From a virus: DNA of 44,247 nt. The notes under the pieces are model-generated. The model searched no databases and was not told where the DNA came from. It worked only from the letters and a program-made list of their open reading frames with translations. The stretch covers positions 1 through 44,247 of IMG/VR virus record IMGVR_UViG_3300005096_000046; one strand, 5' to 3'. Below are positions 1-44,247 of the stretch, piece after piece (within the stretch, counting starts at the first letter, position 1; every line of letters starts with the position of its first letter). A program made the position numbers and the translations under genes.

Positions 1-91
1 ACAGCGCATTGGACTCGGCGTTCAACTACGCCTCGATGGAGGGGCCGGATCTTCGTTCCAGAATTTACAGGATCCTGGACCGGATCGATGG
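1..91. repeat. Left copy of 91-bp terminal direct repeat (circular contig overlap)
   Basis: The first 91 bases are identical to the last 91 (44157-44247). The repeat lies inside a single open reading frame that continues seamlessly from the right end to the left end. This is best read as an assembly overlap of a circular or circularly permuted genome, with an odd length that could match an assembler k-mer. A true physical direct terminal repeat is less likely, because such repeats in podophages are usually longer and rarely interrupt a coding sequence. The unique length is 44,156 bp. Confidence 0.95.
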
Positions 92-3000
92 ATCTTATAT
101 CGAGGAGGTCCTCAACGAAGGGGATGAAGATGCGTACGCCGTGGTCCAAAGTGCTTTCGGCGGCCTCATCGATGACATGAGCATCGAGGAGTTCCAGGAT
201 TATTTCGGGGACAGCGAGGACTATAAAGACGTTGCGGAGGAACTGATCCGGGAACGGATGAAACTCCAGACTCCCCGGGTGATCCCGGTCTTTCTCTCGA
301 TCAAGAACCCGGCTTACGTGGATTCGATCCCGCCTGAGCAAAGAGAGAAGTTGGGCCTCGAAGTCAAGAAGTCCGTCATTGGGAATTTCGACGAAGGCGG
401 AGACGAGTTCGTCGACCAGCTCTTCGACTACCTGACGACGGCAATCGATTCTGTTGTGACCCGAGAGGATATCGAATTCTCTTACAACCAGATCGAGGAG
501 GCAGTCTCCAACATCGTCATACCGTTGATGGAGGAAGGTGGGGAACTTACAACAGCCGCTCTCACCGAGAAGATCCGAGAGGTTCTCGGCGATATCGATT
601 GGTTCTACATGGCCGGGCCCACGGCGGACGAATACGCCGTTGGGGAAGTCGTCAAGGAAGTGCTCGAACTTTACGGGTTCGACGGTGTCGTCCATCTCTC
701 GGCTGGCCCGGACTTCCGGATGAAAGGCCAGATCTACGAGACGGCGCACTACATCGCCTTCTATCCTGAGCAGATCAAGAGCGTCTACAACACCGGGACC
801 TGGTCGACCACGGATGCCAGGATCCTCTTCCAGGAGGGCTCTCCCCTCAACCGGGGGCGGAAGAAGGGGGCCATCCAGTTCGGGAAGACGGAGACCATCA
901 TCCGCCTGTTCGAGGGAGCGGACCTGTCCACCATCGTCCACGAGATGGGCCATCTCTTCCTTCGCCAGCTCCAGGTCCTGACCCACCAGGGCCACGAGGA
1001 GGCCGTCCAGGACATCGCCACCCTGGAGGAGGCTTTCGGATCCCTGACCAGGCGGGAGAGCGTGGAGCGGGTCGCCGACGCCTGGACTCGATACATCGCC
1101 GAGGGGCGGGCCCCGACGCCCCGCCTGGCCGGGGTCTTCGCCCGGCTGTCCCGCTGGCTCCTGGACCTCTTCCGGGGTCTCAGGAACCTCATCAAGGGCG
1201 ACCGGATGGACCCCGAGGTCAAGGCGGTCTTCGACCGCTGGCTCGCCAGCGAGCAGGATATCCAGGCCGCCCGGGCCTACTACGAGCGGAACCAGGCCCT
1301 TTCGGAGATTCTGGCCACCGGAGCCTCCAGGGGCCAAGCTGAGCCCCCAGGCGCAGGCCAGGCGAAGAGCGAGGGGGAGGGGGAGGGTCAGAAGACCCAG
1401 GAACCCGAACGCCCCGCAGAAGGCGAATCTGGGGCTCGTAGAGGCCGTCGGCGTCAGCCCCCCACCGAACGGGAGACCCGGGCGGCCCGGAATCTCAAGG
1501 AGGCCAGGGCCCGGCTCGAGGCCGCCCGGCAACGGGCCCTGGAGGACCTGGTCCAGAAACGGCTTCGCCGAGTGATCCAGCTCAAGGGGGGCCGGGGGGC
1601 CCTGTCCGAGCACATCAAGACCCAGCTCCTCGAGGAGGATCCGGTCTATTCCCTCCTGGCCGAGGTGCGCCGCCTGGGCGGGCTGACGCCGACTCAGTTC
1701 GCCGGGCTGGGCGGGCTCCCCCAGGACTGGATGGAGGTTCTTCAGAAACGGCATGGGAAGGCCCTGGTGAGCAGTACGAAAAAGGCGAAGGTCACCCTTG
1801 CCCAGTTCGAGGAGATGGCCCAGGCCCGAGGATTCGCCTCCGTGCAGGCCGCTCTGAAGGAGGTGCTTGCCAGGCCGCCTCTCAAGCAGGCGGTGAAGGA
1901 GAAGGTGGAGCAGACCCTACGGGACCTGGAGGCCTCGATCCGGGAGGACCTGGAGAAGAACGGCTCTCTCATGCTTGGGGATGAGGCGGTTCACACGCCG
2001 GAGGACCTGGACTTCATCCTGGCCGACCTGGAACTCCTCCGGGAGCGGGCCGCCCGGCAGGCTGTCAGGATCCTCTCCAAGGCAGAGGCCCTGGCCCTCC
2101 GGGACGCCGCCAGGGACACCCTGCGGGCGGAGGCCCCGCTCCGGAAGGCCATGCGATACGACCTGTGGGGAAAGAGGGAGGCCGCCGCCGCCGTCCAGGC
2201 CGAGCGGGCCCTCCGGGAAGGTAAATGGGAGCAGGCTGAGGAGGCCATCAAGCGGCGCATCTTCTTCTTCTCCCTCGTCCAGGAAGCCATCCGTCTCCGG
2301 AAGGATGCGGACAGGATTCTCAAGAAATACGGACTCCAGGATCTCGAGAAGACTTTGAAGAAGGTCCCGCCGGAGACGGCGGCCCTGGTCCAGGACGTAG
2401 CCGCCTACTTCGGCTTGAACAAGGGGCGGGGCCCAGTCTCGGATCTGAAGTTCCGGTGGTATGAGTGGGACGAGGCCAGGACCCGGAGGGAGTTCCAGGA
2501 AGGCCTGGACATGTACCTCCCGGATCTGGAGAGCATGGTCCCCGGATGGATCCTCGAGGGGGAACGACCGGAAGAGTTCAAAGACGCCAAGGATCTGACG
2601 TTCGACCAACTCGATCAGCTCGACAGTTTGCTTCAAAAGATCATCGCCGACGGGAAGGGCGAGGTCCGGGCCCTCCAGGATCTCGGCTACAAGACCATCA
2701 CCGAGTTCTTGACCGACTCGATGCGCAGGCTCCAGACGATCCCGAAGAAGAAACGGAGGGATATCCGCACGATCCCAGGGATGGTCGGACGGCAGATCAA
2801 CCGGGCTCTGGCCGCTCTCCACATCAAGGAATTCATCTTCGAGGAAGCGGATGGAAGTCCTCTCCTCCGAGGGCGGGAATTGGGTCCTCTTCACAAGCTC
2901 TTCAACAAGGTCAACCAGGCGGACGCCGAGGAGCAGAACCGACTCGGGGAACTCTTCCACGTACTTGCCCCGGTGATGAAGGTCCTTGAGCAGGAGAGCC

Positions 3001-4928
3001 GTAAGTTCGACAAGTTCTTCGACATCGAAGGCGTCCCGGTCCCGAGGATCTTGCAAGAAATATACGGCAAGACGCAGTGGGATTTCGATATGCTCATCGC
3101 CGTTCTTCTGAATACCGGGAACGAGGACAACCTCAGGGTCCTGGCCCAGAGCGAGTACGAACTCACAGCCGACACGATCGAGATCCTACGAGGGCAGATC
3201 AGCAAGGAGGCCTGGCAGGCGATTCAGACCATGTGGGATGTGGTCGACTCCCTCTTTCCGGAACTCGAGAGCGTCCGTCGCAGGCTGACCGGCTTGAAGA
3301 CCGAGAAGGTAAAACCGTTGCCCTTCGAGGTCGTGCCAAGAGGGGCGAAGGAATCGATCAAGCTCCGGGGCGGCTACTACCCCTTGATCGCCGATCCAGG
3401 CGTCTCGGAGCGGGCGGCCTCAGCCGAGGAGGAAGAGACCTTCCTCACCCGGGCCAGGAAGGAGATGATCTACCACCCGACGGTCAAGGCGAAACAGGGA
3501 TTTACTGTTTCCAGGATCCGGGACGAGGAGGGCAGGGCCCTCTCGACTCGAGCCCCTCTTCTCTCGACTTCGGTGCTGTTCACCCACCTGAAGGACGTGG
3601 TCCACTTCATCACCCACGCCGAGGTCCTGGACGCCTTCGACAAGGTGACCAGGGACAAGAGCTGGGCCCAGCTCTTCAAGTCGAAGTTCGGGGATGAGGA
3701 ATACGAATCCCTCCGGACCTGGTTGAACTACGTGGCCAGGCCGGAACGGCGGGTCACCGACCCCTTCAACAAGGTCATGGAGTGGGGCCGGAGGAACTTC
3801 GTCGCGGCGGCTCTCGGATTCAGGCTGACCGTCGGCCTGAAACAGCGGCTCTCGATATTCAACGCCATCAACGCCTTGAACCAGGTGGTCAAGGGGTCCG
3901 GGTGGAAATATATCGCCAGGGGTATGGCATTGGTAGCGGCAACTAAATACGGTCCGCTCGAGTATGTCGGGCGGGATATTCTCCTCACGAACCTGGTTGG
4001 GAAGGGATCCCAACAGCTCCTGGATTGGATCCATTCCCTCTCCCCTCTCATGAAGTCCCGGTGGTACACCCTTGACCGGGACCTGGCGGACGCCTTGTCG
4101 TCTCTCAAGCCGAAGGATCTGAAAGGGGAGAAGTTGAAGAAGCTTCGGGAAGCCGCCTTCTGGTGGGTCAAGGCGAACGATGCGGCGGCGGTGATCCCGG
4201 TGTGGCTGGCGGCTTTCGAGCAGGCCCTCGATCATCATCTCAACGGGATCACCCCGGGGATGGAGCAGGAGGAGGCGTTCCGCCGGGCGGCGGAGCATGC
4301 CGACGTGATCGTCAGGATGTCCCAGCCTTCGGCTCTCCCCTCCGACCTGGCCCCGATCCAGCGGCTCGAGGGGATGGCCAGGCTCTTCACGACCTTCATG
4401 ACCTGGCGGATCAAGGCGGGGAATCGTGAGATGTGGTTCCTCTCCGAGGCCAGGCTCAAGCGGATCAAAGCCGGGGAGCCCGCCCTGGACGAGTGGATCT
4501 CGGACCCGGCGGCGACCTGGGGGACCCTCGTCAGGCACTTCGCATTGGAGTGGATCCTGCCGGCCACGGTGGCCCTGGGGACGTCCTGGCTCTGGTATCG
4601 GGACGACAGGGACAAGCCGGGCTGGTGGTCCTGGATCCTCCGGCCCACGACGGACGCCACCCTGGGGTGGATTCCCATCGTGAGCGAGGCGGCGAAGGCG
4701 GTGGAGAGGAAGGAGGCCGCCGGGGTCCCCGTGCTCGCCGGGGCGGAGGCCCTGGGGAAGGCGGCGGACTACACCGTCAAGGCCATCGAGACGGGGGACC
4801 CGGGCCGGGCGACGAAAGCGGCGGTCACCTGGTGGCGGACCATGGAGTGGTTCGCCGGGATTCCTGTGAGTAACATCCCGAGAGACGTCCTTCGCCTCTG
4901 GGAGAAGGGAGTTCTCAATGCCAAGTAA
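3..4928 (+). CDS. Giant polyvalent virion/ejection protein, C-terminal half (continues from 39332-44247)
   Basis: This is the C-terminal half of a protein whose N-terminal half begins at 39332; in the joined gene (GTG 39332 to stop 4928) it is about 3,250 residues. It opens inside an ADP-ribosyltransferase-like domain begun on the other side of the junction. The C-terminal signature of that domain, GFDGVVHL followed by YIAFYPEQIKSVYNTGTW, lies near bases 680-800. Next is a zinc metallopeptidase motif HEMGH at 939-953 (joined residues about 1922-1926), preceded by RLFEGADLSTIV, as in phage polyvalent-protein peptidases. A low-complexity Glu/Gly/Pro/Arg linker follows (about 1320-1480), then long charged helices. 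The last third, with a hydrophobic segment near 4551-4600, resembles the C-terminus of podophage internal virion proteins (T7 gp16 role). It is inferred to enter the host with the DNA. The first ATG in this piece (9) is not a real start because the frame is open upstream. Confidence 0.85.
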   Translation, partial: SALDSAFNYASMEGPDLRSRIYRILDRIDGSYIEEVLNEGDEDAYAVVQSAFGGLIDDMSIEEFQDYFGDSEDYKDVAEELIRERMKLQTPRVIPVFLSIKNPAYVDSIPPEQREKLGLEVKKSVIGNFDEGGDEFVDQLFDYLTTAIDSVVTREDIEFSYNQIEEAVSNIVIPLMEEGGELTTAALTEKIREVLGDIDWFYMAGPTADEYAVGEVVKEVLELYGFDGVVHLSAGPDFRMKGQIYETAHYIAFYPEQIKSVYNTGTWSTTDARILFQEGSPLNRGRKKGAIQFGKTETIIRLFEGADLSTIVHEMGHLFLRQLQVLTHQGHEEAVQDIATLEEAFGSLTRRESVERVADAWTRYIAEGRAPTPRLAGVFARLSRWLLDLFRGLRNLIKGDRMDPEVKAVFDRWLASEQDIQAARAYYERNQALSEILATGASRGQAEPPGAGQAKSEGEGEGQKTQEPERPAEGESGARRGRRRQPPTERETRAARNLKEARARLEAARQRALEDLVQKRLRRVIQLKGGRGALSEHIKTQLLEEDPVYSLLAEVRRLGGLTPTQFAGLGGLPQDWMEVLQKRHGKALVSSTKKAKVTLAQFEEMAQARGFASVQAALKEVLARPPLKQAVKEKVEQTLRDLEASIREDLEKNGSLMLGDEAVHTPEDLDFILADLELLRERAARQAVRILSKAEALALRDAARDTLRAEAPLRKAMRYDLWGKREAAAAVQAERALREGKWEQAEEAIKRRIFFFSLVQEAIRLRKDADRILKKYGLQDLEKTLKKVPPETAALVQDVAAYFGLNKGRGPVSDLKFRWYEWDEARTRREFQEGLDMYLPDLESMVPGWILEGERPEEFKDAKDLTFDQLDQLDSLLQKIIADGKGEVRALQDLGYKTITEFLTDSMRRLQTIPKKKRRDIRTIPGMVGRQINRALAALHIKEFIFEEADGSPLLRGRELGPLHKLFNKVNQADAEEQNRLGELFHVLAPVMKVLEQESRKFDKFFDIEGVPVPRILQEIYGKTQWDFDMLIAVLLNTGNEDNLRVLAQSEYELTADTIEILRGQISKEAWQAIQTMWDVVDSLFPELESVRRRLTGLKTEKVKPLPFEVVPRGAKESIKLRGGYYPLIADPGVSERAASAEEEETFLTRARKEMIYHPTVKAKQGFTVSRIRDEEGRALSTRAPLLSTSVLFTHLKDVVHFITHAEVLDAFDKVTRDKSWAQLFKSKFGDEEYESLRTWLNYVARPERRVTDPFNKVMEWGRRNFVAAALGFRLTVGLKQRLSIFNAINALNQVVKGSGWKYIARGMALVAATKYGPLEYVGRDILLTNLVGKGSQQLLDWIHSLSPLMKSRWYTLDRDLADALSSLKPKDLKGEKLKKLREAAFWWVKANDAAAVIPVWLAAFEQALDHHLNGITPGMEQEEAFRRAAEHADVIVRMSQPSALPSDLAPIQRLEGMARLFTTFMTWRIKAGNREMWFLSEARLKRIKAGEPALDEWISDPAATWGTLVRHFALEWILPATVALGTSWLWYRDDRDKPGWWSWILRPTTDATLGWIPIVSEAAKAVERKEAAGVPVLAGAEALGKAADYTVKAIETGDPGRATKAAVTWWRTMEWFAGIPVSNIPRDVLRLWEKGVLNAK

Positions 4929-34561: not shown

Positions 34562-36922
34562 ATGGCGGTCTATCATTTCAGCATGGTCGAGGGGAATGAC
34601 GACCACGGATCGGGGACCCAGTCGTCCCCGTTTCAGACTTTGGACAAAGCGAACGCTATTTTTTCGTCTGCCATCGTGGCCCCGGGTGATCACTTCTTGT
34701 TTGCCATGGGGGAGACGTTCTTTGGAAAGCTCGAGGCCATCGTAGCCGGGACGGCGGACAAACCGATCAAGATCGGTACTTATGTGCGGGAAGGATCGGC
34801 CTACGACTACATGCCAGCTAGGTTCTGTGGCGGGATCTATCTGATCGGGGCGTGGGAACGGTACAGTTCCGGCGGGGTCGAGATGCGGAGGCGGCCTCTT
34901 CCTGGGTCCGTGTCCTCGGATGTCCTCATGTTCAGGAACCTCGTGGGGAGAAAGTGCGCATCGGTCTCGGCCATTTCGAACGACTATGACTGGACCATCG
35001 ATTCGAACTACATCTACATCTACGCTTCAGCGGATCCATGGAGTTACTACGGGATCAAGCCGGAAGATCTGGTCCTCGTGACGAAGGATTCGATCCTTGC
35101 TATTGGAGCGGGATACATCGAGGTGGAACGAATTCGGTTCCAGCATTGGAACTACGTTTCGTCCAATCAGGCCCCGGCTGTGAATATCGATGGGGATACG
35201 TCGGTCATCAAGGGGATCTCGATTCACGATTGCGAGATTCTTGCCGGGTTCAATCTTGGCTCGGTAGGAATCTCGGTGCAATACGCAGAGGCCGACATCG
35301 AACACAACCATTTCGATAGGCCGTACATCGGCATCTCCGTCAGGGACCACGGAACGGTGACGAGCAAGAGCAATCTTTTTTCCGGGGTCTTCACGCCGAT
35401 CTCTCTGGATCACGTCACGGCGGGCGGGACCTCCACGAAGGATCTTTCTGTCGGCGGGATGCAGACGTTCCCGACGGACATGGATACCGGGACCTCGAAG
35501 GAGGACAATCGGCTTCCCTTCGAGTTCTTCGTGCGACCTTCGAGCATGATGAAGGCGACGCTGATTCTCGACGATCCTTTTCTTGCGGCGAGTGACTACT
35601 CCAGGGCGGGGAAGACGCCGATTGTTCTTCCTGATTTTCTGAATACGATCCTCGATATTTTTGATCGATTCGGTCAGAAATATCCGGGATTGGGCGTAGT
35701 GTCCGCTCGGCTTGCCGAGGACCCGGAGACTTGGCAAGGGGCGATTGAGTTCCTCCGGGAGTTCCATGACAAGGGCGGGGACATCGTCAACCACTCCTGG
35801 TCCCATACGGCGTTCATCTCGGGTTCGGCGGATGTGGGGCTCTACATTTCGTCTACTTTGGCCGATCCCAAGTTGACGATCCAAGATGTCGTCAGTGGGA
35901 GCACTACGACAAGGCATCTCGTCATCAAGGACGGAACAACGGTCAAGGAGGATCTGAACCTTTCGTCCTCGGCTTACAAGTATATCTACCAGGTAGTCGA
36001 CTACCTCAACGCCAAGTCGGAATACACGGTTTCCCCGGGGGTTGTGACTTATACCTACAACAGCTATAAATATCAACATTCCGAATCTTTGGCTCTCATC
36101 GCTGATGTTCCGATCTCCTCGACTTACGGGGCGAAGTTTTCGGCACAGAAGTTCGCCGAACACGAGATTGGCAAGTCCTATGATTTCCTCACCGATGTCG
36201 TGGGGACCACTCCAAGCCGGATGTATGCATATCCTTTCGGTCAGCTCTACGACTACGCAAGCCTGGACACGGTCTTCTCGGCTTTCTCGAACCATAAATG
36301 CGGGCGGAAAGCCGCTCCGGATCCCTTGGTGACGCAGAATCCCGGTTATAAGGGGGCGTTCGATATGCTCGCCCTCCCGGCCCAGGTTTTCACTCTCTCG
36401 GCCAGTACCGAATCGGGGTTGAGGGACAGCATCTTTCGGCACATGCGGTTCTGTCAGCGGAACGCCCAGCCAGCGATTTTCTTCTTCCACCCGGAATACG
36501 GTACGGAATATCTGGTCAAGGCGATTCTCTCGGCAATCCTGGAGCTGGGGGAGTTCGTGACCCCGGACGAACTTTACGAGGATTTCGAATCCAACCTCAT
36601 CACGCTGGATTTCCGGCATAGGATGCTGAAGGCCGAGAGCAGGCCGAATCTCTTTGATCTTCGGACCTTCTACGATCTCCACGAGGATTCCTCGGCGAGG
36701 GGGGAGGGGGCGGCCCCTGTCGGCACTTACGACATCAAGGGACGGATCTATGAGCCCTCCCTGAGGCGGGACGTAGGGCCCCGGCAATGGATCTCCAGGC
36801 TTCGGGAGTTGAGGGAGGCCCCGGTGCCGGTCCGGGTGGCGGACGCCCCGGAGACCGGCTACGCTGAGGCGTCGATGTTCTTTCTGGTCATGGAAGCCGA
36901 GACGGCTCCGGTCTTTCCGTAG
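34562..36922 (+). CDS. Tailspike: beta-helix domain plus NodB-type polysaccharide deacetylase domain
   Basis: The 786-residue protein begins with a beta-helix-like region: GSGTQSSPFQTLDKANAIF, and later rungs such as IEVERIRFQHWNYVSS, ISIHDCEILAGFNLG and IEHNHFDRPYIGISV. From about residue 325 it changes to a carbohydrate-esterase-4 (NodB) pattern: motif 1 ATLILDDPF (D337/D338), motif 2 NHSWSH (H411, H415), a YAYPFGQ element near 557-560 and IFFFHPE (H643). It should bind and deacetylate a host surface polysaccharide. The C-terminus (DIKGRIYEPSLRRDVG...) is a short beta tail. The first aspartate pair is followed by Pro rather than Gly, a slight departure from TFDDG. Confidence 0.85.
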   Translation: MAVYHFSMVEGNDDHGSGTQSSPFQTLDKANAIFSSAIVAPGDHFLFAMGETFFGKLEAIVAGTADKPIKIGTYVREGSAYDYMPARFCGGIYLIGAWERYSSGGVEMRRRPLPGSVSSDVLMFRNLVGRKCASVSAISNDYDWTIDSNYIYIYASADPWSYYGIKPEDLVLVTKDSILAIGAGYIEVERIRFQHWNYVSSNQAPAVNIDGDTSVIKGISIHDCEILAGFNLGSVGISVQYAEADIEHNHFDRPYIGISVRDHGTVTSKSNLFSGVFTPISLDHVTAGGTSTKDLSVGGMQTFPTDMDTGTSKEDNRLPFEFFVRPSSMMKATLILDDPFLAASDYSRAGKTPIVLPDFLNTILDIFDRFGQKYPGLGVVSARLAEDPETWQGAIEFLREFHDKGGDIVNHSWSHTAFISGSADVGLYISSTLADPKLTIQDVVSGSTTTRHLVIKDGTTVKEDLNLSSSAYKYIYQVVDYLNAKSEYTVSPGVVTYTYNSYKYQHSESLALIADVPISSTYGAKFSAQKFAEHEIGKSYDFLTDVVGTTPSRMYAYPFGQLYDYASLDTVFSAFSNHKCGRKAAPDPLVTQNPGYKGAFDMLALPAQVFTLSASTESGLRDSIFRHMRFCQRNAQPAIFFFHPEYGTEYLVKAILSAILELGEFVTPDELYEDFESNLITLDFRHRMLKAESRPNLFDLRTFYDLHEDSSARGEGAAPVGTYDIKGRIYEPSLRRDVGPRQWISRLRELREAPVPVRVADAPETGYAEASMFFLVMEAETAPVFP

Positions 36923-36931
36923 GAGGGTGCG

Positions 36932-37453
36932 ATGTGCGTGGATCCGATCACTGCAACGGCCATTGTGGCGGGCACTGCCGCTGTCGGGCAGGGCTATGCC
37001 ACGGCTATGGGGCAGAAGGCGCAGAACAAGGCTCTCAGAGCCCGGGCCCGCCTGGCGGAGCTGAACGCCCGGGTCAACCAGGCACGGGCCTCGGACGCCA
37101 CTCTCAGGGGCCGCACGAGGGCCCTCAGGCGGGCTGTGCAGGCCGAGCATGCCATGGGTGCCACCAGGGCCGGGGCGGCGGCGGCGGGCGTCCAGGTGGA
37201 CACAGGGAGCCCTCTGGCCCTCCTCCAGGCGACTGAGCATGTTGGCCAGCAGGAGGTCTTCGAGGAGACCCAGCGGGCCGCCCTGGAGGCCTGGGGCTAC
37301 AACGTGGAGGCGGTCAACGCCAGGAACCGGGCGAACCTCTACAGGGCCAGCACGGCGTCCCCCTGGTTCGCCGCTTCTCTGCAGACGGTCGGATCGTTGG
37401 GACAGCTCGGGTTTTCCTACCTGGGAGCCTCGGGCGTGGGGAAGGGAGCGTAA
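36932..37453 (+). CDS. Internal virion protein B-like (T7 gp14-like)
   Basis: The 173-residue protein starts MCVDPITATAIVAGTAAVGQGYATAMGQ, then has long Ala/Arg/Gln helices (NKALRARARLAELNARVNQARAS) and ends with Gly/Ser-rich hydrophobic residues. This is the composition of small podophage ejection proteins that span the outer membrane in T7 (gp14). Its position between tailspike and the two larger helical proteins supports the assignment. Start is ATG 36932 with AGGAGG upstream. Confidence 0.75.
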   Translation: MCVDPITATAIVAGTAAVGQGYATAMGQKAQNKALRARARLAELNARVNQARASDATLRGRTRALRRAVQAEHAMGATRAGAAAAGVQVDTGSPLALLQATEHVGQQEVFEETQRAALEAWGYNVEAVNARNRANLYRASTASPWFAASLQTVGSLGQLGFSYLGASGVGKGA

Positions 37454-37455
37454 AG

Positions 37456-39330
37456 GTGCGGATTCCTTACAGGCGGTTTTCTCAGGGCGGGATGCCGGGG
37501 CTCCCCGGGGTGCAGGTCTCGGAGAATGTTCCCGGGGCGGCCTTCGGGGCCCAGAAGTTCTCGCAGATCTCCCAGGGCCTGGGGAGCATCCAGCAGGCGG
37601 GTTCTGCCGGGATGCAGTTCTTCGCCTATCTCCAACGGCAGGACGACTATCTCAAGGTCACCCAGAAGATCGCCGAGCAGAGGGATTGGCAGAATTCCTT
37701 CATGCAGGAGGCGATGCAGAAGAGGGGGATCGAGGCGTCGGGTCTCACGAAAGCCTTCATCGAAGCGCAGAAGGAGAAGGCCAAGGAGTTGGAGAAGACT
37801 CTGGAGACGCCGAGGCAGATCGCCATGTTCCGGATGGCTCAGTTGCGGTATAACACATACGCCTTGAACGCCATCCAACGCCATGAGATCCAGCAGAAGG
37901 AGGCCGCCTTCCAGGAGGAGACCAAGAAGCAGATGGAGTTGGACCTCCACGATGTCGCCCAGGACCCCTACAACGATGATCTTTTCCAGGCCAGGCTCAA
38001 GGATTTTCAGGAGAAGACCGTCGTGTTGAATCGAGGGCTTACGCCGAAGGCCCTGGAGGAGGTCAAGCGGAAGGCGGCGGAAGTCATCGTGGAGCACCGG
38101 GTCCAGGCCATCATTGCCGATGCGGCGAACTACGAGGGCCGGGAGCGGGAGGAGAAGCTTGCGGCGGCGAAAGAGGTGTTGGCCCAGCACAGGAAGGTCA
38201 TGGATGGGGTGAAGTACTCGTCCCTCCTTTCGACCTTGAAGCAGGCGGAGGTGCAGGCCAAGGGGGATCGGATCGGGGAGGAGGCTTTCGACAAGTACGG
38301 CGAGGAAGCGATCTATAAGATCACCGAACTCAACAATCTCTCCGACGAGGTCAAGACCAGGGCCCTGGAACGGGTGAAGGATCTTGTCGCAAAAGAGAAG
38401 ATGGCCCAGGTCGTGAAAGAGAAGGAAGCGGTCGACAGGATCTTGACCACTTTCGACGAGCAACGGCAGACAATGACAAAAGCCGATCTGACCAAGATGC
38501 TCGAAACAGAATATGACAATCTTTCTCCGTCGAAGCGGCTCGCATTGCGGAATCAGTTGGAAAGCTACATCGACGCCAGAGACAACAATCGTCTCCGTGA
38601 GGAAAAGGCTCAGATTCGGAACCAGATTCTCGAGACCTATCTCAAGGATCCGAAGGCTTTTCTCGACCTCGACATCCAGGATGTTGGAGCGGCGTTGGAT
38701 CCTACCGAGAGGGCGAAGTTCATCGAGATGCAAAACGAGATGCGTAGAGGCGAGACGACGCTCAAGACGAAGTTCTTCCAGACCGGGATGAAAACAGCCG
38801 ACAGCGTATTCAAGTCTTATTTCCCGAAACCGACCAAGCTGAAAGACGAGAGCGAAGAGGACTATCAGGCCCGAGTGGATGACTGGATGCTCAAGAAGTC
38901 CGACTTTACCAGCATGGCCATGCAGATCATCATGAGGGCGGATCCGAAAAAGACATCGATCTCGGAGATCAACAAGGAAATCGGAAACCTGGTCGAGACT
39001 TTCACATCTACCGAAACCGGTTCAACGCTTTACAAGTTCCAGATCCCGAAGGAATACAGCGGAGGCGGGCTTGGCGAACTCGAGCCCTCGGAGCGGACCG
39101 TCGAGCTGTGGCGGAAGCGGTATGGATTTTCTGACGAAGCGAGGTTCGACGCCGGGACGGGGCTCTTCGAAGAAGAAAACAAGGAGGCGATCAGGAAGGT
39201 GCTGTTCTCGTTCGGCAAGCCCGCCACCTTCCAAGGCCATGCCATCGACAAGATCTGGATGACGGCGGACGAGAAGCTCTACAAGATCAGGACGACGGAC
39301 GGAAAGATCCACATCCTTCAGGAGAAGTAA
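37456..39330 (+). CDS. Internal virion/ejection protein C-like (624 aa)
   Basis: GTG 37456 follows the previous stop by two bases. The protein starts with a Gly/Pro-rich arm (RIPYRRFSQGGMPGLPGVQVSENVPGAAFG), then is almost wholly helical and charged, as in T7 gp15-like ejection proteins that build the periplasmic tunnel. The C-terminus has a small beta domain (DEKLYKIRTTDGKIHILQEK). No enzymatic motif is seen. Assignment is by order, size and composition. Confidence 0.75.
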   Translation: MRIPYRRFSQGGMPGLPGVQVSENVPGAAFGAQKFSQISQGLGSIQQAGSAGMQFFAYLQRQDDYLKVTQKIAEQRDWQNSFMQEAMQKRGIEASGLTKAFIEAQKEKAKELEKTLETPRQIAMFRMAQLRYNTYALNAIQRHEIQQKEAAFQEETKKQMELDLHDVAQDPYNDDLFQARLKDFQEKTVVLNRGLTPKALEEVKRKAAEVIVEHRVQAIIADAANYEGREREEKLAAAKEVLAQHRKVMDGVKYSSLLSTLKQAEVQAKGDRIGEEAFDKYGEEAIYKITELNNLSDEVKTRALERVKDLVAKEKMAQVVKEKEAVDRILTTFDEQRQTMTKADLTKMLETEYDNLSPSKRLALRNQLESYIDARDNNRLREEKAQIRNQILETYLKDPKAFLDLDIQDVGAALDPTERAKFIEMQNEMRRGETTLKTKFFQTGMKTADSVFKSYFPKPTKLKDESEEDYQARVDDWMLKKSDFTSMAMQIIMRADPKKTSISEINKEIGNLVETFTSTETGSTLYKFQIPKEYSGGGLGELEPSERTVELWRKRYGFSDEARFDAGTGLFEEENKEAIRKVLFSFGKPATFQGHAIDKIWMTADEKLYKIRTTDGKIHILQEK

Positions 39331-39331
39331 C

Positions 39332-42300
39332 GTGACCAGCATGCCTCCTCTCTTTCCCGGTCTGGAGCCTGAGAAGGACAAACCCACCTTCCCGGTCGAC
39401 GATACCAAGGCGTGGGGTTCGGCGATCACCGTCCCGGACCTCAACGTCGATGAGGCCCTTGCCAAAGCCAGGGAGCGGGAACGGCGGCTTCCCGTCTGGG
39501 AGTTCCATCGTCCTGGGTTCAAGGGTCCGCACAAGGCTCTCCAAGAACTTTTCTCCGAGTATTCGCCAGAGGACCTGGTGGAGGTGGTGGCGGGCGGGAA
39601 GGAAAAGACCTTTCTGCAGGCCCTTCATCTCTATCAAGACCCGGACAAGGCCTACCTGGCGGCCTTCGGGAGGGAAGGGACAGCGAAAGAGAAGGCGAAG
39701 CTCTACGCTGAGTTGACGGGGATCCCAGAGCACGAGATCGTAAGGCATCTCAAGGACTTCGAGGAGAAGGTCCTTTTCGGGAAGATCCCTGACGTCAAGA
39801 AGGCCTACGACGAGTTCTTGTCCAGGTCCGTCTTTGCGGAACAGAAACGGAACGAGAAGGAGATCGCAGAGATCGCCGATTCCCTTCGACGGGAATTCGA
39901 GAAGGGATCGAGCCAAGAGGCTCTGATCTACAAGTACGCCAGAATGCTCGAGGTTTCCCCGGCCTACGTCCGGGCGAACCTGGACAAGGTGAGGGCGGAG
40001 GTCTTCACGAAAAAGGTCCTGGAGGATCTGGATCGCTTGTTCCCCTACCCCAAAGACGGGGATCTCATGAAGGCCTGGTTGAAGAATCCGGAGAACGCCA
40101 GCCTGGCCGTCAACAGCCTCCCCTACATCTCGAGGGTCCGGGGGATGATGATCGCCAAGAAGGCGTCCTGGCCGGAGAAGTTCTGGAAATCCCAGGTCGT
40201 CCCGATGGCGGAGGGGTTGTTCGGGGCCGGGATTCTCAGCTTTTCCGGCATGCTGAATAAAGGGGCGAGTTTCCTGCTTTCGCCGATTTCGGAGAAGGCG
40301 AAGGAAGATCAGTACTCGCTCTACCTGCAGGCGATGGCGACATCCAAGTTGATCGAGGAGTCTCAGCCTGTCTTTGCGAAGGGCGAGATCGGTTACGGGA
40401 CGGAACTCGCCGGGGCCTTCGGGCAGATGATTGCGGCGGTTGGCGTAACGCTTCTCAGCGGCGGCTCCGACATACCGGTGCTCTTCCTTTACGGCACGTC
40501 GGAAGCGGGGAACCTATTCCGGGAAAAGGACGCCCAGGGCGTTCCTTTCCTCCCTGCGTTTCTCATCTCCGTGTCCGTCGGGACCTTGAACGCCACCATC
40601 GAGTCGATGCAGATCAAGGGAGCCGGGCGCATCGGCGGATTCCGGAAGTTCCTCGCCAAGGACCTGGTACGCCAGCACGCCTTCGAGATCGCCGGGGAGA
40701 TCATGCGGGAGGGGGCGGAGGAACTGATCCAGCAGGTGGTCCACGAGGTCGGATCCATCGGATTGGACTTGGCTGGGCCCGCCAGGAACCGGCCCTCCTT
40801 CAAGCAGATCCTCCAGCGCATCGCCGGGGCGGTGACCTCCGGGCTCTATCAGGGAAGCCTGGCGGCCCTCTCGGCCTCCTTCTTCGGGGCCTTCCGGCTG
40901 AGGAACATGTTCCATCGGGTGTCCTTGGCACAGGCCCAGCAGGAGTTCGTCAAGAACATCATGGAGGCCTCCCAGGCCGCCCCTATGACCGAGGAGAACG
41001 TGGAGGCCACCAGGACCTTCCTCCAGGCCGCCTTCAAGGGGAGTGATCTGGAGCGGTCCTACATCCCCGCCCAGGCGGTCGAGGAGTATTTTCAGGACAA
41101 GGGGGAGGAGATGCGCCGGGAGTTCCTTGAGGCCCTGGCCATCACCGAAGAGAAGTTCCTGAAGGTCCTCCGGGAGGGAGGGGACCTGGAGTTCAACACC
41201 GAGGATTGGCTCGCCCGGGCGGCCAGGATGGATTCGGCGGTTGATCTGTTCTCGAAGGTGTCCTGGGGCGGTCAGATGACTCTCATGGAGATGAACGAGG
41301 TTGCCGTCAAGGCGAAGCATGACGCCCAGGTCCTTGCCTCCACCCTTTACGATATGGCGGAAGTGGAGAATCCCGGAGAATTGTCCTCGGCCAAGATTGA
41401 GGCGATGGAGGAGACTCTCACGGAGTTCTACGGGAAAGAGCAGGCCAAGGCGGTCATGGCCCTCTTCAAGGCCGGGGCTCTCCGATTCGGCAAGTTGCAG
41501 GGGATGAGTCCGAAGGAGATCGCTCAGAAGCTGACCCCCACGATTGTCGTCCAGTCGTTCGACTCTTTCGTCGAGGCAAAGAACGGGAAGGTCGATGTCG
41601 CCCTGGAGGAAGCCCATCGGAAGATCATGGAGAAGCGGGCGGTGAGCTGGCTCCCTCCCCGAGCCCGGCGGGCTAAGATGCCCCCGGCCTTCCTGAACAA
41701 GGAGGGCATGGCCCTCCCAGCCTATCGGGAGACCGGAGGGATCTGGCGAATCCATCGGACGCCGGTCACCGGGGAGGAGATGGCCATCCTCAGGGCGAGG
41801 AAGACCCTGGACGTGAACGCCGAGACCCAGGAGGCGGAGGATTTCAGATCCTGGGCCCGGGACCAGGTGGGGAGCGTCTACAAGGCCATCCAGGCTTTTT
41901 CCTCCGGGGAGCGGGGTTCCAAGGTCATCCGAGACCGGGTCCGTGCCTGGGCGAAGGCGAGAGGGATCGACATCATCTACGACGGCACCGAGGTTGTGCC
42001 GATGACTCGCCAGGCGATCCAGCCGATCAAGATCGGGCCGGAAGAGAAGGAGAGATTTCAACATCCGGAACCGAACTATTTTTACAAGACCCTCGGCGAG
42101 ATCGACCCCGAGAACATCGAGGTCGACAAGGAGGCCGAGGAGGAGTTCTTTCAGCAGGATCCGAGGAAGTGGCGATACGATTTTTCTAAATACGAATGGA
42201 AGGTCGTCAACAACCGGGTTGCGAAGGAATTCGAGATCATCGATGCTCTCGGATTCAAACCGCCGAGTCTGCTTGAAGAGCTGATCGTCACCGGGGAACC

Positions 42301-44247
42301 GGGAAAGAAGAGTGAGAAGAGGAACAGGGTCCCCGAGGCCTATTCCCTTGCCGAGGCCATCTACGCTCAATTGGATTGGGCAAAAAAGCTGTTCGACCCA
42401 AACCTCACCCCGGAGGGACTTTTCGAGCAGACCGATCTGAAGGGGGCGAAGGCAAAGGCCAAGTTCAAGAAGTTCGTTTTGAAGCTGAGACAAGGATCGA
42501 CGCTTTTCGACGAACCGCCGGAGAAGGGTGTTCTTTCGGCCAACGACAAGGCGACGGCGGGGGTGAGCCTGGCTTTGTTCATGTGTCAACCTTCCGTCTC
42601 ATGCCCTGAGTGCTATGTCGCCAAGGCCATGATTCGATTCGACACCGTCTTCAAGGCGGTGCGGAACTCGCTTCTCATCCTGCTTGATCCAAAGGCTTTT
42701 GGCCGGGCCGTGGCCGAGGAGGCGAAAGCTTTTTCCAAGCTCGATCTCCCGTATATCCGTCTGCTCGATTCCGGCGACATGACCTTTTCAGAAACCGTCG
42801 AGGCCTTCAACGAGATCGCCAAGCATGCGGATCGGGACATCCATATCTTCTCCAGGCATCATGACAACCTGGCCAAGTTGAAGAGCACCTGGAATTCCGC
42901 CTTCATGAAGATGGGGTCCTTGGACATCGGGCTCTACGAGCACTACGTGAAGGAATACGGAAAAGAGTGGCTCAAGAACAATCTCAGGGAACGGGGGATC
43001 AGCAACTGCTGGCTCTTGCGGGATCCCTCTGAGATCCCGTTGGTCGACCAGCTTGTGGATGAGGGTATCATCAATCTGATCTTCCCGGCGTCGGAGAAGC
43101 TCCACCCGAAGCTTGGGGTCCTGGCCAGGGCCTCTTCGTGCCCGTGCGATATTCACGAAAAGTCGTCTCTCGGCGCATGTCGAGGATGCGCCGCCAGTGC
43201 GATGGGGTGTCGCCTTGCGTTCAACAAGGTCTACGTGGACGAGGCCGGGAACCTTCTGGTCGAAGAGGACCTGGACAAAGCTCAGGGCAACGTCCGCCCT
43301 CTCGCCACCTCCTTCCTCAACAAGGCGGTCCTCGAGGAGGGGCTCTCGGGGCGGGCCGAAGCTGTGGCGAAGACCTACGCCAACGTGGTCCGGGACTACC
43401 TGAAGAAGATGCAGGAAAAAACCCGGGACGACGAGCGGGCCTGGAGGAAGATGCGGAAGGTCGTTCTCGAGGAGAAGCGGGCTCCGAAGCAGAGTGACAA
43501 GGCGAAGATGGGGGTCAAGTTCCGGGACTACCGGGCCCCGGACCAGGACGTCACCTATCACGACATCGAGGTGGCGATGGCCAGGGAGAACATGACCCGG
43601 GCGAAACGAGGAAAGCTTCCGATCACGCTCGAGGAGATGCGGCAGAAAGAGGCCAAGATCCAAAAGCGCAAACCTGGATTCCGATACGCCACCAAGGAGG
43701 AGATCGAAGCAAGGCTTCAGGCCTATCGAGAGAACCTCCAGGGTGCGTGGGCCAAGCTCGAGAAGGGAACCTTTTTCATCCCGGGCGGAGAGGCTGTTCC
43801 TCCTGTGGCCTACAAGGCCTGGAAGAAGATGGACACCATTGAGGACCTGGACCTCAACGAGTTCTTCCAGGAGGAGGGGCCTGCATTCTCTTGGGGCTAC
43901 AGCTACCCCTACAACGAGGAAGGAACGCAGGAGTTCGTCATCGGCTACCGGGAGCAGATCCAGAACTCCCAGGCGGTCAAGCGCACCCTCGAGGATGAAA
44001 ATTTCAAGAAGTGGTTCGAAGGATCCAAGATCGTCGATCAGGACGGCAAACCCTTGGTCGTCTTTCACGGGACCTTGCGGGACATCGAGGGCGGAGCCTT
44101 TGATATCTCGAAGATCCCTCTGACCAACGATGTTGGCCGGGCGTTCTATTTCAGTGACAGCGCATTGGACTCGGCGTTCAACTACGCCTCGATGGAGGGG
44201 CCGGATCTTCGTTCCAGAATTTACAGGATCCTGGACCGGATCGATGG
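39332..44247 (+). CDS. Giant polyvalent virion/ejection protein, N-terminal half (continues at 3-4928)
   Basis: GTG 39332 has GGAG 7 bases upstream (ATG 39341 is the alternative with poorer spacing). The frame is open to the window end and resumes at base 3, giving about 3,250 residues. Residues 1-280 are helical. About 285-525 contains several hydrophobic segments, likely membrane-inserting. Around 1080-1300 lies a cysteine domain resembling phage GP88: C1091-PE-C1094-Y, LLDSGDM (D1149), and a late cluster C1270/C1272/C1283/C1286/C1293. Near 1565 an ADP-ribosyltransferase-like domain starts (VDQDGKPLVVFHGT, H1579; RAFYFSDS) and finishes on the other side of the junction. The metallopeptidase and virion-core parts follow in 3-4928. 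It is inferred to be injected with DNA (T7 gp16 slot). Domain names rest on motif recognition only. Confidence 0.85.
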   Translation, partial: MTSMPPLFPGLEPEKDKPTFPVDDTKAWGSAITVPDLNVDEALAKARERERRLPVWEFHRPGFKGPHKALQELFSEYSPEDLVEVVAGGKEKTFLQALHLYQDPDKAYLAAFGREGTAKEKAKLYAELTGIPEHEIVRHLKDFEEKVLFGKIPDVKKAYDEFLSRSVFAEQKRNEKEIAEIADSLRREFEKGSSQEALIYKYARMLEVSPAYVRANLDKVRAEVFTKKVLEDLDRLFPYPKDGDLMKAWLKNPENASLAVNSLPYISRVRGMMIAKKASWPEKFWKSQVVPMAEGLFGAGILSFSGMLNKGASFLLSPISEKAKEDQYSLYLQAMATSKLIEESQPVFAKGEIGYGTELAGAFGQMIAAVGVTLLSGGSDIPVLFLYGTSEAGNLFREKDAQGVPFLPAFLISVSVGTLNATIESMQIKGAGRIGGFRKFLAKDLVRQHAFEIAGEIMREGAEELIQQVVHEVGSIGLDLAGPARNRPSFKQILQRIAGAVTSGLYQGSLAALSASFFGAFRLRNMFHRVSLAQAQQEFVKNIMEASQAAPMTEENVEATRTFLQAAFKGSDLERSYIPAQAVEEYFQDKGEEMRREFLEALAITEEKFLKVLREGGDLEFNTEDWLARAARMDSAVDLFSKVSWGGQMTLMEMNEVAVKAKHDAQVLASTLYDMAEVENPGELSSAKIEAMEETLTEFYGKEQAKAVMALFKAGALRFGKLQGMSPKEIAQKLTPTIVVQSFDSFVEAKNGKVDVALEEAHRKIMEKRAVSWLPPRARRAKMPPAFLNKEGMALPAYRETGGIWRIHRTPVTGEEMAILRARKTLDVNAETQEAEDFRSWARDQVGSVYKAIQAFSSGERGSKVIRDRVRAWAKARGIDIIYDGTEVVPMTRQAIQPIKIGPEEKERFQHPEPNYFYKTLGEIDPENIEVDKEAEEEFFQQDPRKWRYDFSKYEWKVVNNRVAKEFEIIDALGFKPPSLLEELIVTGEPGKKSEKRNRVPEAYSLAEAIYAQLDWAKKLFDPNLTPEGLFEQTDLKGAKAKAKFKKFVLKLRQGSTLFDEPPEKGVLSANDKATAGVSLALFMCQPSVSCPECYVAKAMIRFDTVFKAVRNSLLILLDPKAFGRAVAEEAKAFSKLDLPYIRLLDSGDMTFSETVEAFNEIAKHADRDIHIFSRHHDNLAKLKSTWNSAFMKMGSLDIGLYEHYVKEYGKEWLKNNLRERGISNCWLLRDPSEIPLVDQLVDEGIINLIFPASEKLHPKLGVLARASSCPCDIHEKSSLGACRGCAASAMGCRLAFNKVYVDEAGNLLVEEDLDKAQGNVRPLATSFLNKAVLEEGLSGRAEAVAKTYANVVRDYLKKMQEKTRDDERAWRKMRKVVLEEKRAPKQSDKAKMGVKFRDYRAPDQDVTYHDIEVAMARENMTRAKRGKLPITLEEMRQKEAKIQKRKPGFRYATKEEIEARLQAYRENLQGAWAKLEKGTFFIPGGEAVPPVAYKAWKKMDTIEDLDLNEFFQEEGPAFSWGYSYPYNEEGTQEFVIGYREQIQNSQAVKRTLEDENFKKWFEGSKIVDQDGKPLVVFHGTLRDIEGGAFDISKIPLTNDVGRAFYFSDSALDSAFNYASMEGPDLRSRIYRILDRID
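44157..44247. repeat. Right copy of 91-bp terminal direct repeat
   Basis: This stretch is identical to bases 1-91 and shows that the contig closes on itself. Removing one copy leaves a 44,156-bp circle in which the giant gene is intact. Confidence 0.95.

What the first reader, a model, noticed from the sequence alone, without database searches (positions are those of the whole stretch)
44040..44247. ADP-ribosyltransferase-like domain spanning the contig junction
VVFHGT with RAFYFSDS near the right end, plus GFDGVVHL and YIAFYPEQIKSVYNTGTW near 680-800 at the left end, match the N- and C-terminal signatures of ART domains in phage polyvalent proteins. The gap between them is larger than usual, implying an insertion of about 150 residues. 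It could modify host targets on entry. It is invisible unless the contig is circularised.
Basis: partly seen in the sequence, partly recalled or inferred. Interest (0 to 1): 0.7.

Follow-up and report, generated by a model that had tools for sequence, protein, structure and literature searches.

The report
Phage ADP-ribosyltransferase split by contig ends
A short-tailed phage carries, inside a giant protein that it probably injects with its DNA, a PARP-like enzyme domain of the kind that tags host molecules with ADP-ribose; it was cut in two only because the circular genome was written out as a line.

Summary
The contig ends share an exact 91-bp overlap (1-91 = 44157-44247), and one gene runs through the junction (39332 to 44247, then 1 to 4928; about 3250 codons). 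Searched apart, its two ends match adjoining parts of Pfam ART-PolyVal: profile 1-46 at 44036-44191 and 46-136 at 249-794. A profile built only from uninterrupted relatives gives 83 and 118 bits; the best of 4000 shuffles gives 9.5. The extra ~150 residues are real: they mark a long ART-PolyVal class (about a dozen distinct relatives, including phages Mx1 and Tunturi_5) with helical insertions and a conserved T-x-H-Y-I-A-F-x-P-E-Q motif. AlphaFold models of two long-class relatives match PARP/tankyrase and a protein of the cyanophage A4 pre-ejectosome. His and Tyr of the H-Y-E triad are present; by inference, the Glu position holds His. The gene lies in the ejection cassette, syntenic with Bordetella phage BPP-1 bbp14-bbp10, and an HExxH motif follows the ART. 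Best reading: an injected polyvalent effector that mono-ADP-ribosylates a host target early in infection. The fold assignment is strong; injection is inferred from synteny; activity and target are unproven. New member of a known kind; a possible H-Y-H subfamily is the only mildly novel part.

The parts
39332..44247 (+). 5' part of the giant (about 3250-codon) virion/polyvalent gene, running off the right end
   Evidence: open frame, GTG start just after the stop of the upstream gene
1..4928 (+). 3' part of the same gene, entering from the left end
   Evidence: in-frame continuation through the 91-bp terminal overlap; phrog_9880 E 1.7e-104
44157..44247 (+). right copy of the exact 91-bp terminal overlap (identical to 1-91)
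1..91 (+). left copy of the 91-bp terminal overlap
44003..44247 (+). N-terminal part of the ART-PolyVal domain (FKKWFEGSKIVD lead-in, strand-1 VVFHGT, strand-2 RAFYFS, start of helical insert 1)
   Evidence: PF18760 profile 1-46; long-class profile 5-87
92..845 (+). C-terminal part of the ART-PolyVal domain (insert 1, strand VIPVFLSIKNP, insert 2, GFDGVV, HYIAFYPEQIKS)
   Evidence: PF18760 profile 46-136 at 249-794; long-class profile 64-288
44066..44068 (+). His of FHGT, strand 1, predicted NAD-binding/catalytic His
44147..44149 (+). Tyr of FYFS, strand 2, predicted NAD-binding Tyr
747..749 (+). His of the THYIAF-type motif, at the position of the PARP catalytic Glu
939..1085 (+). HEMGH ... 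ESVERVADAW: zincin-like metallopeptidase motif 64 residues after the ART motif
   Evidence: fold not tested
42584..43216 (+). Cys-rich stretch overlapping a weak GP88 (PF17338) match
   Evidence: E 4.6e-4, below curated cut-off
36932..37453 (+). internal virion protein (phrog_418), upstream in the ejection cassette
37456..39330 (+). 624-aa protein in the place of BPP-1 bbp11 (endolysin) / second ejection protein
   Evidence: position only; no family match

Best explanation
The two contig ends together encode one ADP-ribosyltransferase domain of the ART-PolyVal family (PARP-like fold), of a long class with helical insertions. It lies in the middle of a roughly 3250-residue Bbp10-like polyvalent protein of a podovirus. 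The gene is the last of an internal-virion (ejection) cassette, so the protein is most likely packaged in the head and ejected into the host with the DNA. The adjoining HExxH metallopeptidase may free the ART. The ART would then bind host NAD+ with its His/Tyr pocket and transfer single ADP-ribose units to a host macromolecule early in infection. Shown: the join, the family, the fold of relatives, and the gene order. Inferred: packaging, ejection, cleavage, catalysis and target.
For: Exact 91-bp terminal overlap in frame. Adjoining Pfam matches. 82.6 and 118 bits against a relatives-only profile versus 9.5 for shuffles. Uninterrupted relatives with the same insert and, in L012, L013 and L032, the same following HExxH at 57-60 residues against 64 in the window. 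AlphaFold models of the long-class relatives L012 (pLDDT 80, pTM 0.73) and L108 (pLDDT 83, pTM 0.80), not of the window itself. BFVD best match an ART-PolyVal-like phage protein, E 6.4e-14. PDB matches by VIA-align: cyanophage A4 pre-ejectosome 9k3a_B, Z 9.5 (rmsd 4.1, 169 aligned) and 10.9 (rmsd 3.8, 174 aligned), then tankyrase at Z about 8. Cassette syntenic with BPP-1, vir555, L012 and L032. Polyvalent ARTs and zincins described by Iyer et al. 2017 (PMC5512222); packaging of phage ARTs argued in PMC9503650.
Against: No acid at the PARP Glu position (His instead), so activity could be weak, changed or lost. The window's own domain was not folded as one chain; models are of relatives (about a third identical to the window parts). 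Tankyrase Z values of 7-9 are only moderate by the tool's own note; Foldseek alone gives E of 0.2 or more for tankyrase, and the second model has no Foldseek PDB match with E below 0.001. No direct evidence of packaging, cleavage or activity.
Confidence: 0.75

Rival explanations
1. The domain has the ART fold but is catalytically dead; it is kept as an NAD/ADP-ribose-binding or structural module of the ejection apparatus, for example sensing or titrating ADP-ribose-based defence signals.
For: PARP Glu position is His in the window and in every long-class member seen. The best solved match is a protein inside an intact pre-ejectosome.
Against: His of strand 1 and Tyr of strand 2, needed for NAD binding, are conserved in nearly all of these. 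Human PARPs with H-Y-I or H-Y-Y are listed as mono-ADP-ribosylating (table in PMC7955679). The conserved His suggests use rather than decay.
Confidence: 0.2
2. The two halves are ends of different genes or genomes, brought together by an assembly overlap; no single ART domain exists.
For: The junction lies exactly in this gene, and a 91-bp overlap could in principle be a repeat.
Against: Overlap is exact and in frame, falls in the long-class motif GPDLxSRI present on both sides, the profile positions adjoin, and relatives are uninterrupted with the same neighbours.
Confidence: 0.03
3. The ART acts inside the producing cell late in infection, or on competing phages (superinfection), rather than being ejected.
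For: Gene is in the late structural block; no proof of packaging.
Against: Same place as the ejection/internal virion genes in BPP-1-like phages; polyvalent proteins are thought to be virion-borne.
Confidence: 0.1

Closest known systems
ART-PolyVal, Pfam PF18760 (Tox-ART-HYD2-like ARTs of polyvalent proteins; Iyer et al. 2017)
   Same: Profile match on both halves, His in strand 1, Tyr in strand 2, GFDG and AFxPEQIKS motifs, setting in a multidomain phage protein beside a zincin motif
   Different: About 150 residues longer (two helical insertions); His at the PARP Glu position instead of an acid
Bordetella phage BPP-1 Bbp10 and its relatives (phrog_9880)
   Same: Gene position in the structural cassette and the HExxH region; the window's C-terminal body matches phrog_9880
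   Different: BPP-1 Bbp10 shows LPD22 and a PBECR1 RNase domain and no ART match; the window has an ART and a weak GP88 match
Long-class ARTs of Myxococcus phage Mx1 and Tunturiibacter phage Tunturi_5 (annotated only as NUDIX hydrolases)
   Same: Whole long-class profile, 240-243 bits, His before Y/F-I-V
   Different: Larger genomes and other gene settings; their proteins are annotated as NUDIX hydrolases
T4 Alt
   Same: Works like: a virion-borne ART ejected with DNA that modifies host proteins
   Different: Alt belongs to the R-S-E clade; not the same family
Cyanophage A4 pre-ejectosome protein (PDB 9k3a chain B)
   Same: Best solved structural match of the relatives' models (Z 9.5 and 10.9), located in an ejection complex
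   Different: No sequence match at E below 1; the paper (PNAS 2025) was not readable here

Membership tests
ART-PolyVal (PF18760) | profile match | tested here: met
   32.8 bits for the right half (cut-off 31.2) and 22.4 for the left, at adjoining positions; each half alone is below cut-off in hmmscan, 27.5 and 21.4 bits
ART-PolyVal (PF18760) | ART (PARP-like) fold | tested here: met
   models of long-class relatives L012 and L108 match tankyrase (Z 8.8, rmsd 3.9, 114 aligned; Z 8.0, rmsd 4.9, 125 aligned) and 9k3a_B (Z 9.5 and 10.9); window itself not folded as one chain
ART-PolyVal (PF18760) | His in strand 1 | tested here: met
   FHGT, His at 44066-44068
ART-PolyVal (PF18760) | Tyr in strand 2 | tested here: met
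   FYFS, Tyr at 44147-44149
ART-PolyVal (PF18760) | Asp in strand 5 (Iyer et al. 2017) | tested here: inconclusive
   Which column is meant is not stated in the text read. Asp of GFDG is present (675-698). The residue aligned with the PARP Glu is His (747-749). In 117 other sampled domains only 59 have D/E at either of the two candidate positions
Polyvalent protein (Iyer et al. 2017) | large phage protein with several unrelated effector domains | tested here: met
   about 3250 codons with ART, HExxH motif and weak GP88; the last two rest on motif or sub-threshold evidence
Polyvalent protein (Iyer et al. 2017) | zincin fold for the HExxH region | not tested
   motif HEMGH plus downstream Glu only; 33 phage records match the left part of the protein, most of those listed over this region
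Polyvalent protein (Iyer et al. 2017) | packaged and injected | not testable with these tools
   inferred from gene order

The most novel reading that the evidence does not exclude
The long class is a separate ART subfamily of ejected phage proteins with a conserved H-Y-H active centre. The second His takes the place of the catalytic acid, and the helical insertions serve to recognise one particular host target.
Probability: 0.3. Interest if true: 0.5.

Novelty: new member of a known kind. Interest (0 to 1): 0.3.

Why it matters
It shows that a gene cut by linearising a circular contig can be read correctly. It also joins a recognisable set of long ARTs, some of which sit at the effector slot of BPP-1-like ejection proteins. 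That slot holds different effectors in different phages: an RNase in BPP-1, ARTs here, and zeta toxin plus ART in L012. If the conserved His at the Glu position is functional, it would be a small but testable variation on PARP-type chemistry.

Tried and rejected
Uninterrupted relatives were folded instead. Sequence search of PDB found no chain at E below 0.1; the best was tankyrase at E 0.21 over the HG...YF part, and the two whole halves gave only chance matches. The cyanophage A4 paper is not held. A search for 'H-Y-H' ARTs in papers found none, which says little given the library's limits. The long antisense frames (for example 3-1754 minus) are taken as shadows of a GC-rich coding strand. 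No tRNA or Rfam RNA in the window. Coordinates of the models were not available, so pocket geometry was judged from alignment ends only. The third-residue mapping assumes no gap between the His and the last aligned residue, and the tankyrase residue number for the catalytic Glu (TNKS2 1138, TNKS1 1291) is from my own knowledge; both models give the same pairing.

Full report
Observation. The window is a 44,247-base virus record. Its first and last 91 bases are identical, and the frame that opens at 39332 runs off the right end and continues, in register, from the left end to the stop at 4928. Counted with the overlap once, the gene has about 3250 codons.

Not chance. Pfam PF18760 (ART-PolyVal) matches the right end over profile positions 1-46 (E 6.1e-9, above cut-off) and the left end over 46-136 (E 3.2e-6), with no match in 14 control genomes (hmmscan gives the same split). 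A profile built from eleven uninterrupted relatives and without the window scores the right part at 82.6 bits (positions 5-87) and the left part at 118 bits (64-288). The overlap of the two ranges is the duplicated 91 bp. None of 4000 shuffles passed 9.5 bits, and no other frame of the window passed 2.3 bits.

The insertion. In a sample of ART-PolyVal domains from IMG/VR, the distance from the strand-1 His to the last strand has a median near 135 residues; in the window it is about 281. The excess is shared by a distinct long class (218-288 residues in the sample). Its members are L003/L108, L012, L013, L020, L030, L032, L035, L038, L039, L097 and L110, with L052 and L115 apparently near-duplicates of L039 and L012/L013; several loci are repeat fetches of one contig. 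Two isolated phages, Mx1 and Tunturi_5, also belong (240 and 243 bits). Shared marks are GPDLxxRI after strand 2, helical insertions before and after the PVYLxxxNP strand, and a His directly before the last strand (T-x-H-Y/W/F-I).

Fold. AlphaFold models of L012 (pLDDT 79.9, pTM 0.73) and L108 (pLDDT 83.2, pTM 0.80, all five models alike in confidence) show the strand order of the ART fold with mostly helical insertions. These are relatives; the window's own domain was not folded in one piece. In BFVD the best match is a phage ART-PolyVal-like protein (E 6.4e-14). In PDB the best by VIA-align is chain B of the cyanophage A4 pre-ejectosome, Z 9.5 (rmsd 4.1, 169 aligned) and 10.9 (rmsd 3.8, 174 aligned), followed by tankyrases at Z 8.8 (rmsd 3.9, 114 aligned) and 8.0 (rmsd 4.9, 125 aligned).

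Active site. The A2 profile aligns HG and GxGxYF with tankyrase HG and GAGIYF (E 0.2), which fits His 44066-44068 and Tyr 44147-44149 as the NAD-pocket pair. The last aligned residues in the two models (277 to TNKS2 1152, and 277 to 1151) both place the conserved long-class His at TNKS2 1138, the catalytic Glu. This assumes no gap in the last 13-14 residues and uses my own knowledge of the Glu number. In the window this residue is His 747-749. Iyer et al. describe H, Y and D for the family. Which column carries their D is not clear to me: the GFDG Asp is present, and at the PARP Glu column and its neighbour only 59 of 117 other sampled domains have an acid. Human PARPs without the Glu are listed as mono-ADP-ribosylating (PMC7955679), so the His does not by itself argue for a dead enzyme.

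Setting. Upstream lie terminase, head-tail adaptor (portal-type connector), a scaffold/protease-family protein, major head protein, two tail proteins (phrog_394, phrog_376), an internal virion protein (phrog_418), a 624-aa protein without family, and then the giant gene. Bordetella phage BPP-1 has the same order, bbp14-bbp13-bbp12-bbp11-bbp10, as do vir555 and, for the part held, L012 and L032. The giant protein belongs to the Bbp10-type family (phrog_9880, E 1.7e-104; tblastn to Bbp10). BPP-1 Bbp10 has LPD22 and a PBECR1 RNase domain; L012 has zeta toxin and ART; L032 has several ART stretches and LPD22. An HEMGH motif follows the window's ART motif by 64 residues, as in L012, L013 and L032 (57-60), and phage records matching this part include BPP-1 and relatives. 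Iyer et al. propose that such zincins process polyvalent proteins.

Mechanism. Most likely the protein is packed in the head, ejected with the DNA, perhaps cut next to the ART, and the ART uses host NAD+ to mono-ADP-ribosylate a host molecule, as T4 Alt does although from another ART clade. The join, family, fold of relatives and gene order are shown; packaging, cleavage, catalysis and target are inferred.

Verdict. The finding is right and the thing is of a known kind. The mildly novel part is the long class with a conserved His where PARPs have Glu.

Noticed in passing
42584-43216: Cys-rich stretch in the N-terminal half of the giant protein overlapping a weak GP88 (PF17338) match, E 4.6e-4, below the curated cut-off; a possible second effector domain.
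   Followed up: no
34562-36922: Protein in the tail region with weak matches to DUF1565 and polysaccharide deacetylase, perhaps a receptor-degrading spike.
   Followed up: no
L012 13991-15280: A reverse transcriptase (phrog_1423) lies downstream of the ART-bearing giant gene, as in the tropism-switching cassette of BPP-1.
   Followed up: no
L144 3105-7544 and L145 1802-5890: The giant proteins of phages Mx1 and Tunturi_5 are annotated only as NUDIX hydrolases although each carries a whole long-class ART.
   Followed up: partly
L142 6105-12029: vir555 (host given as Methanomicrobiales) has a Bbp10-type giant protein with a weak ART-PolyVal match, E 0.0072.
   Followed up: no
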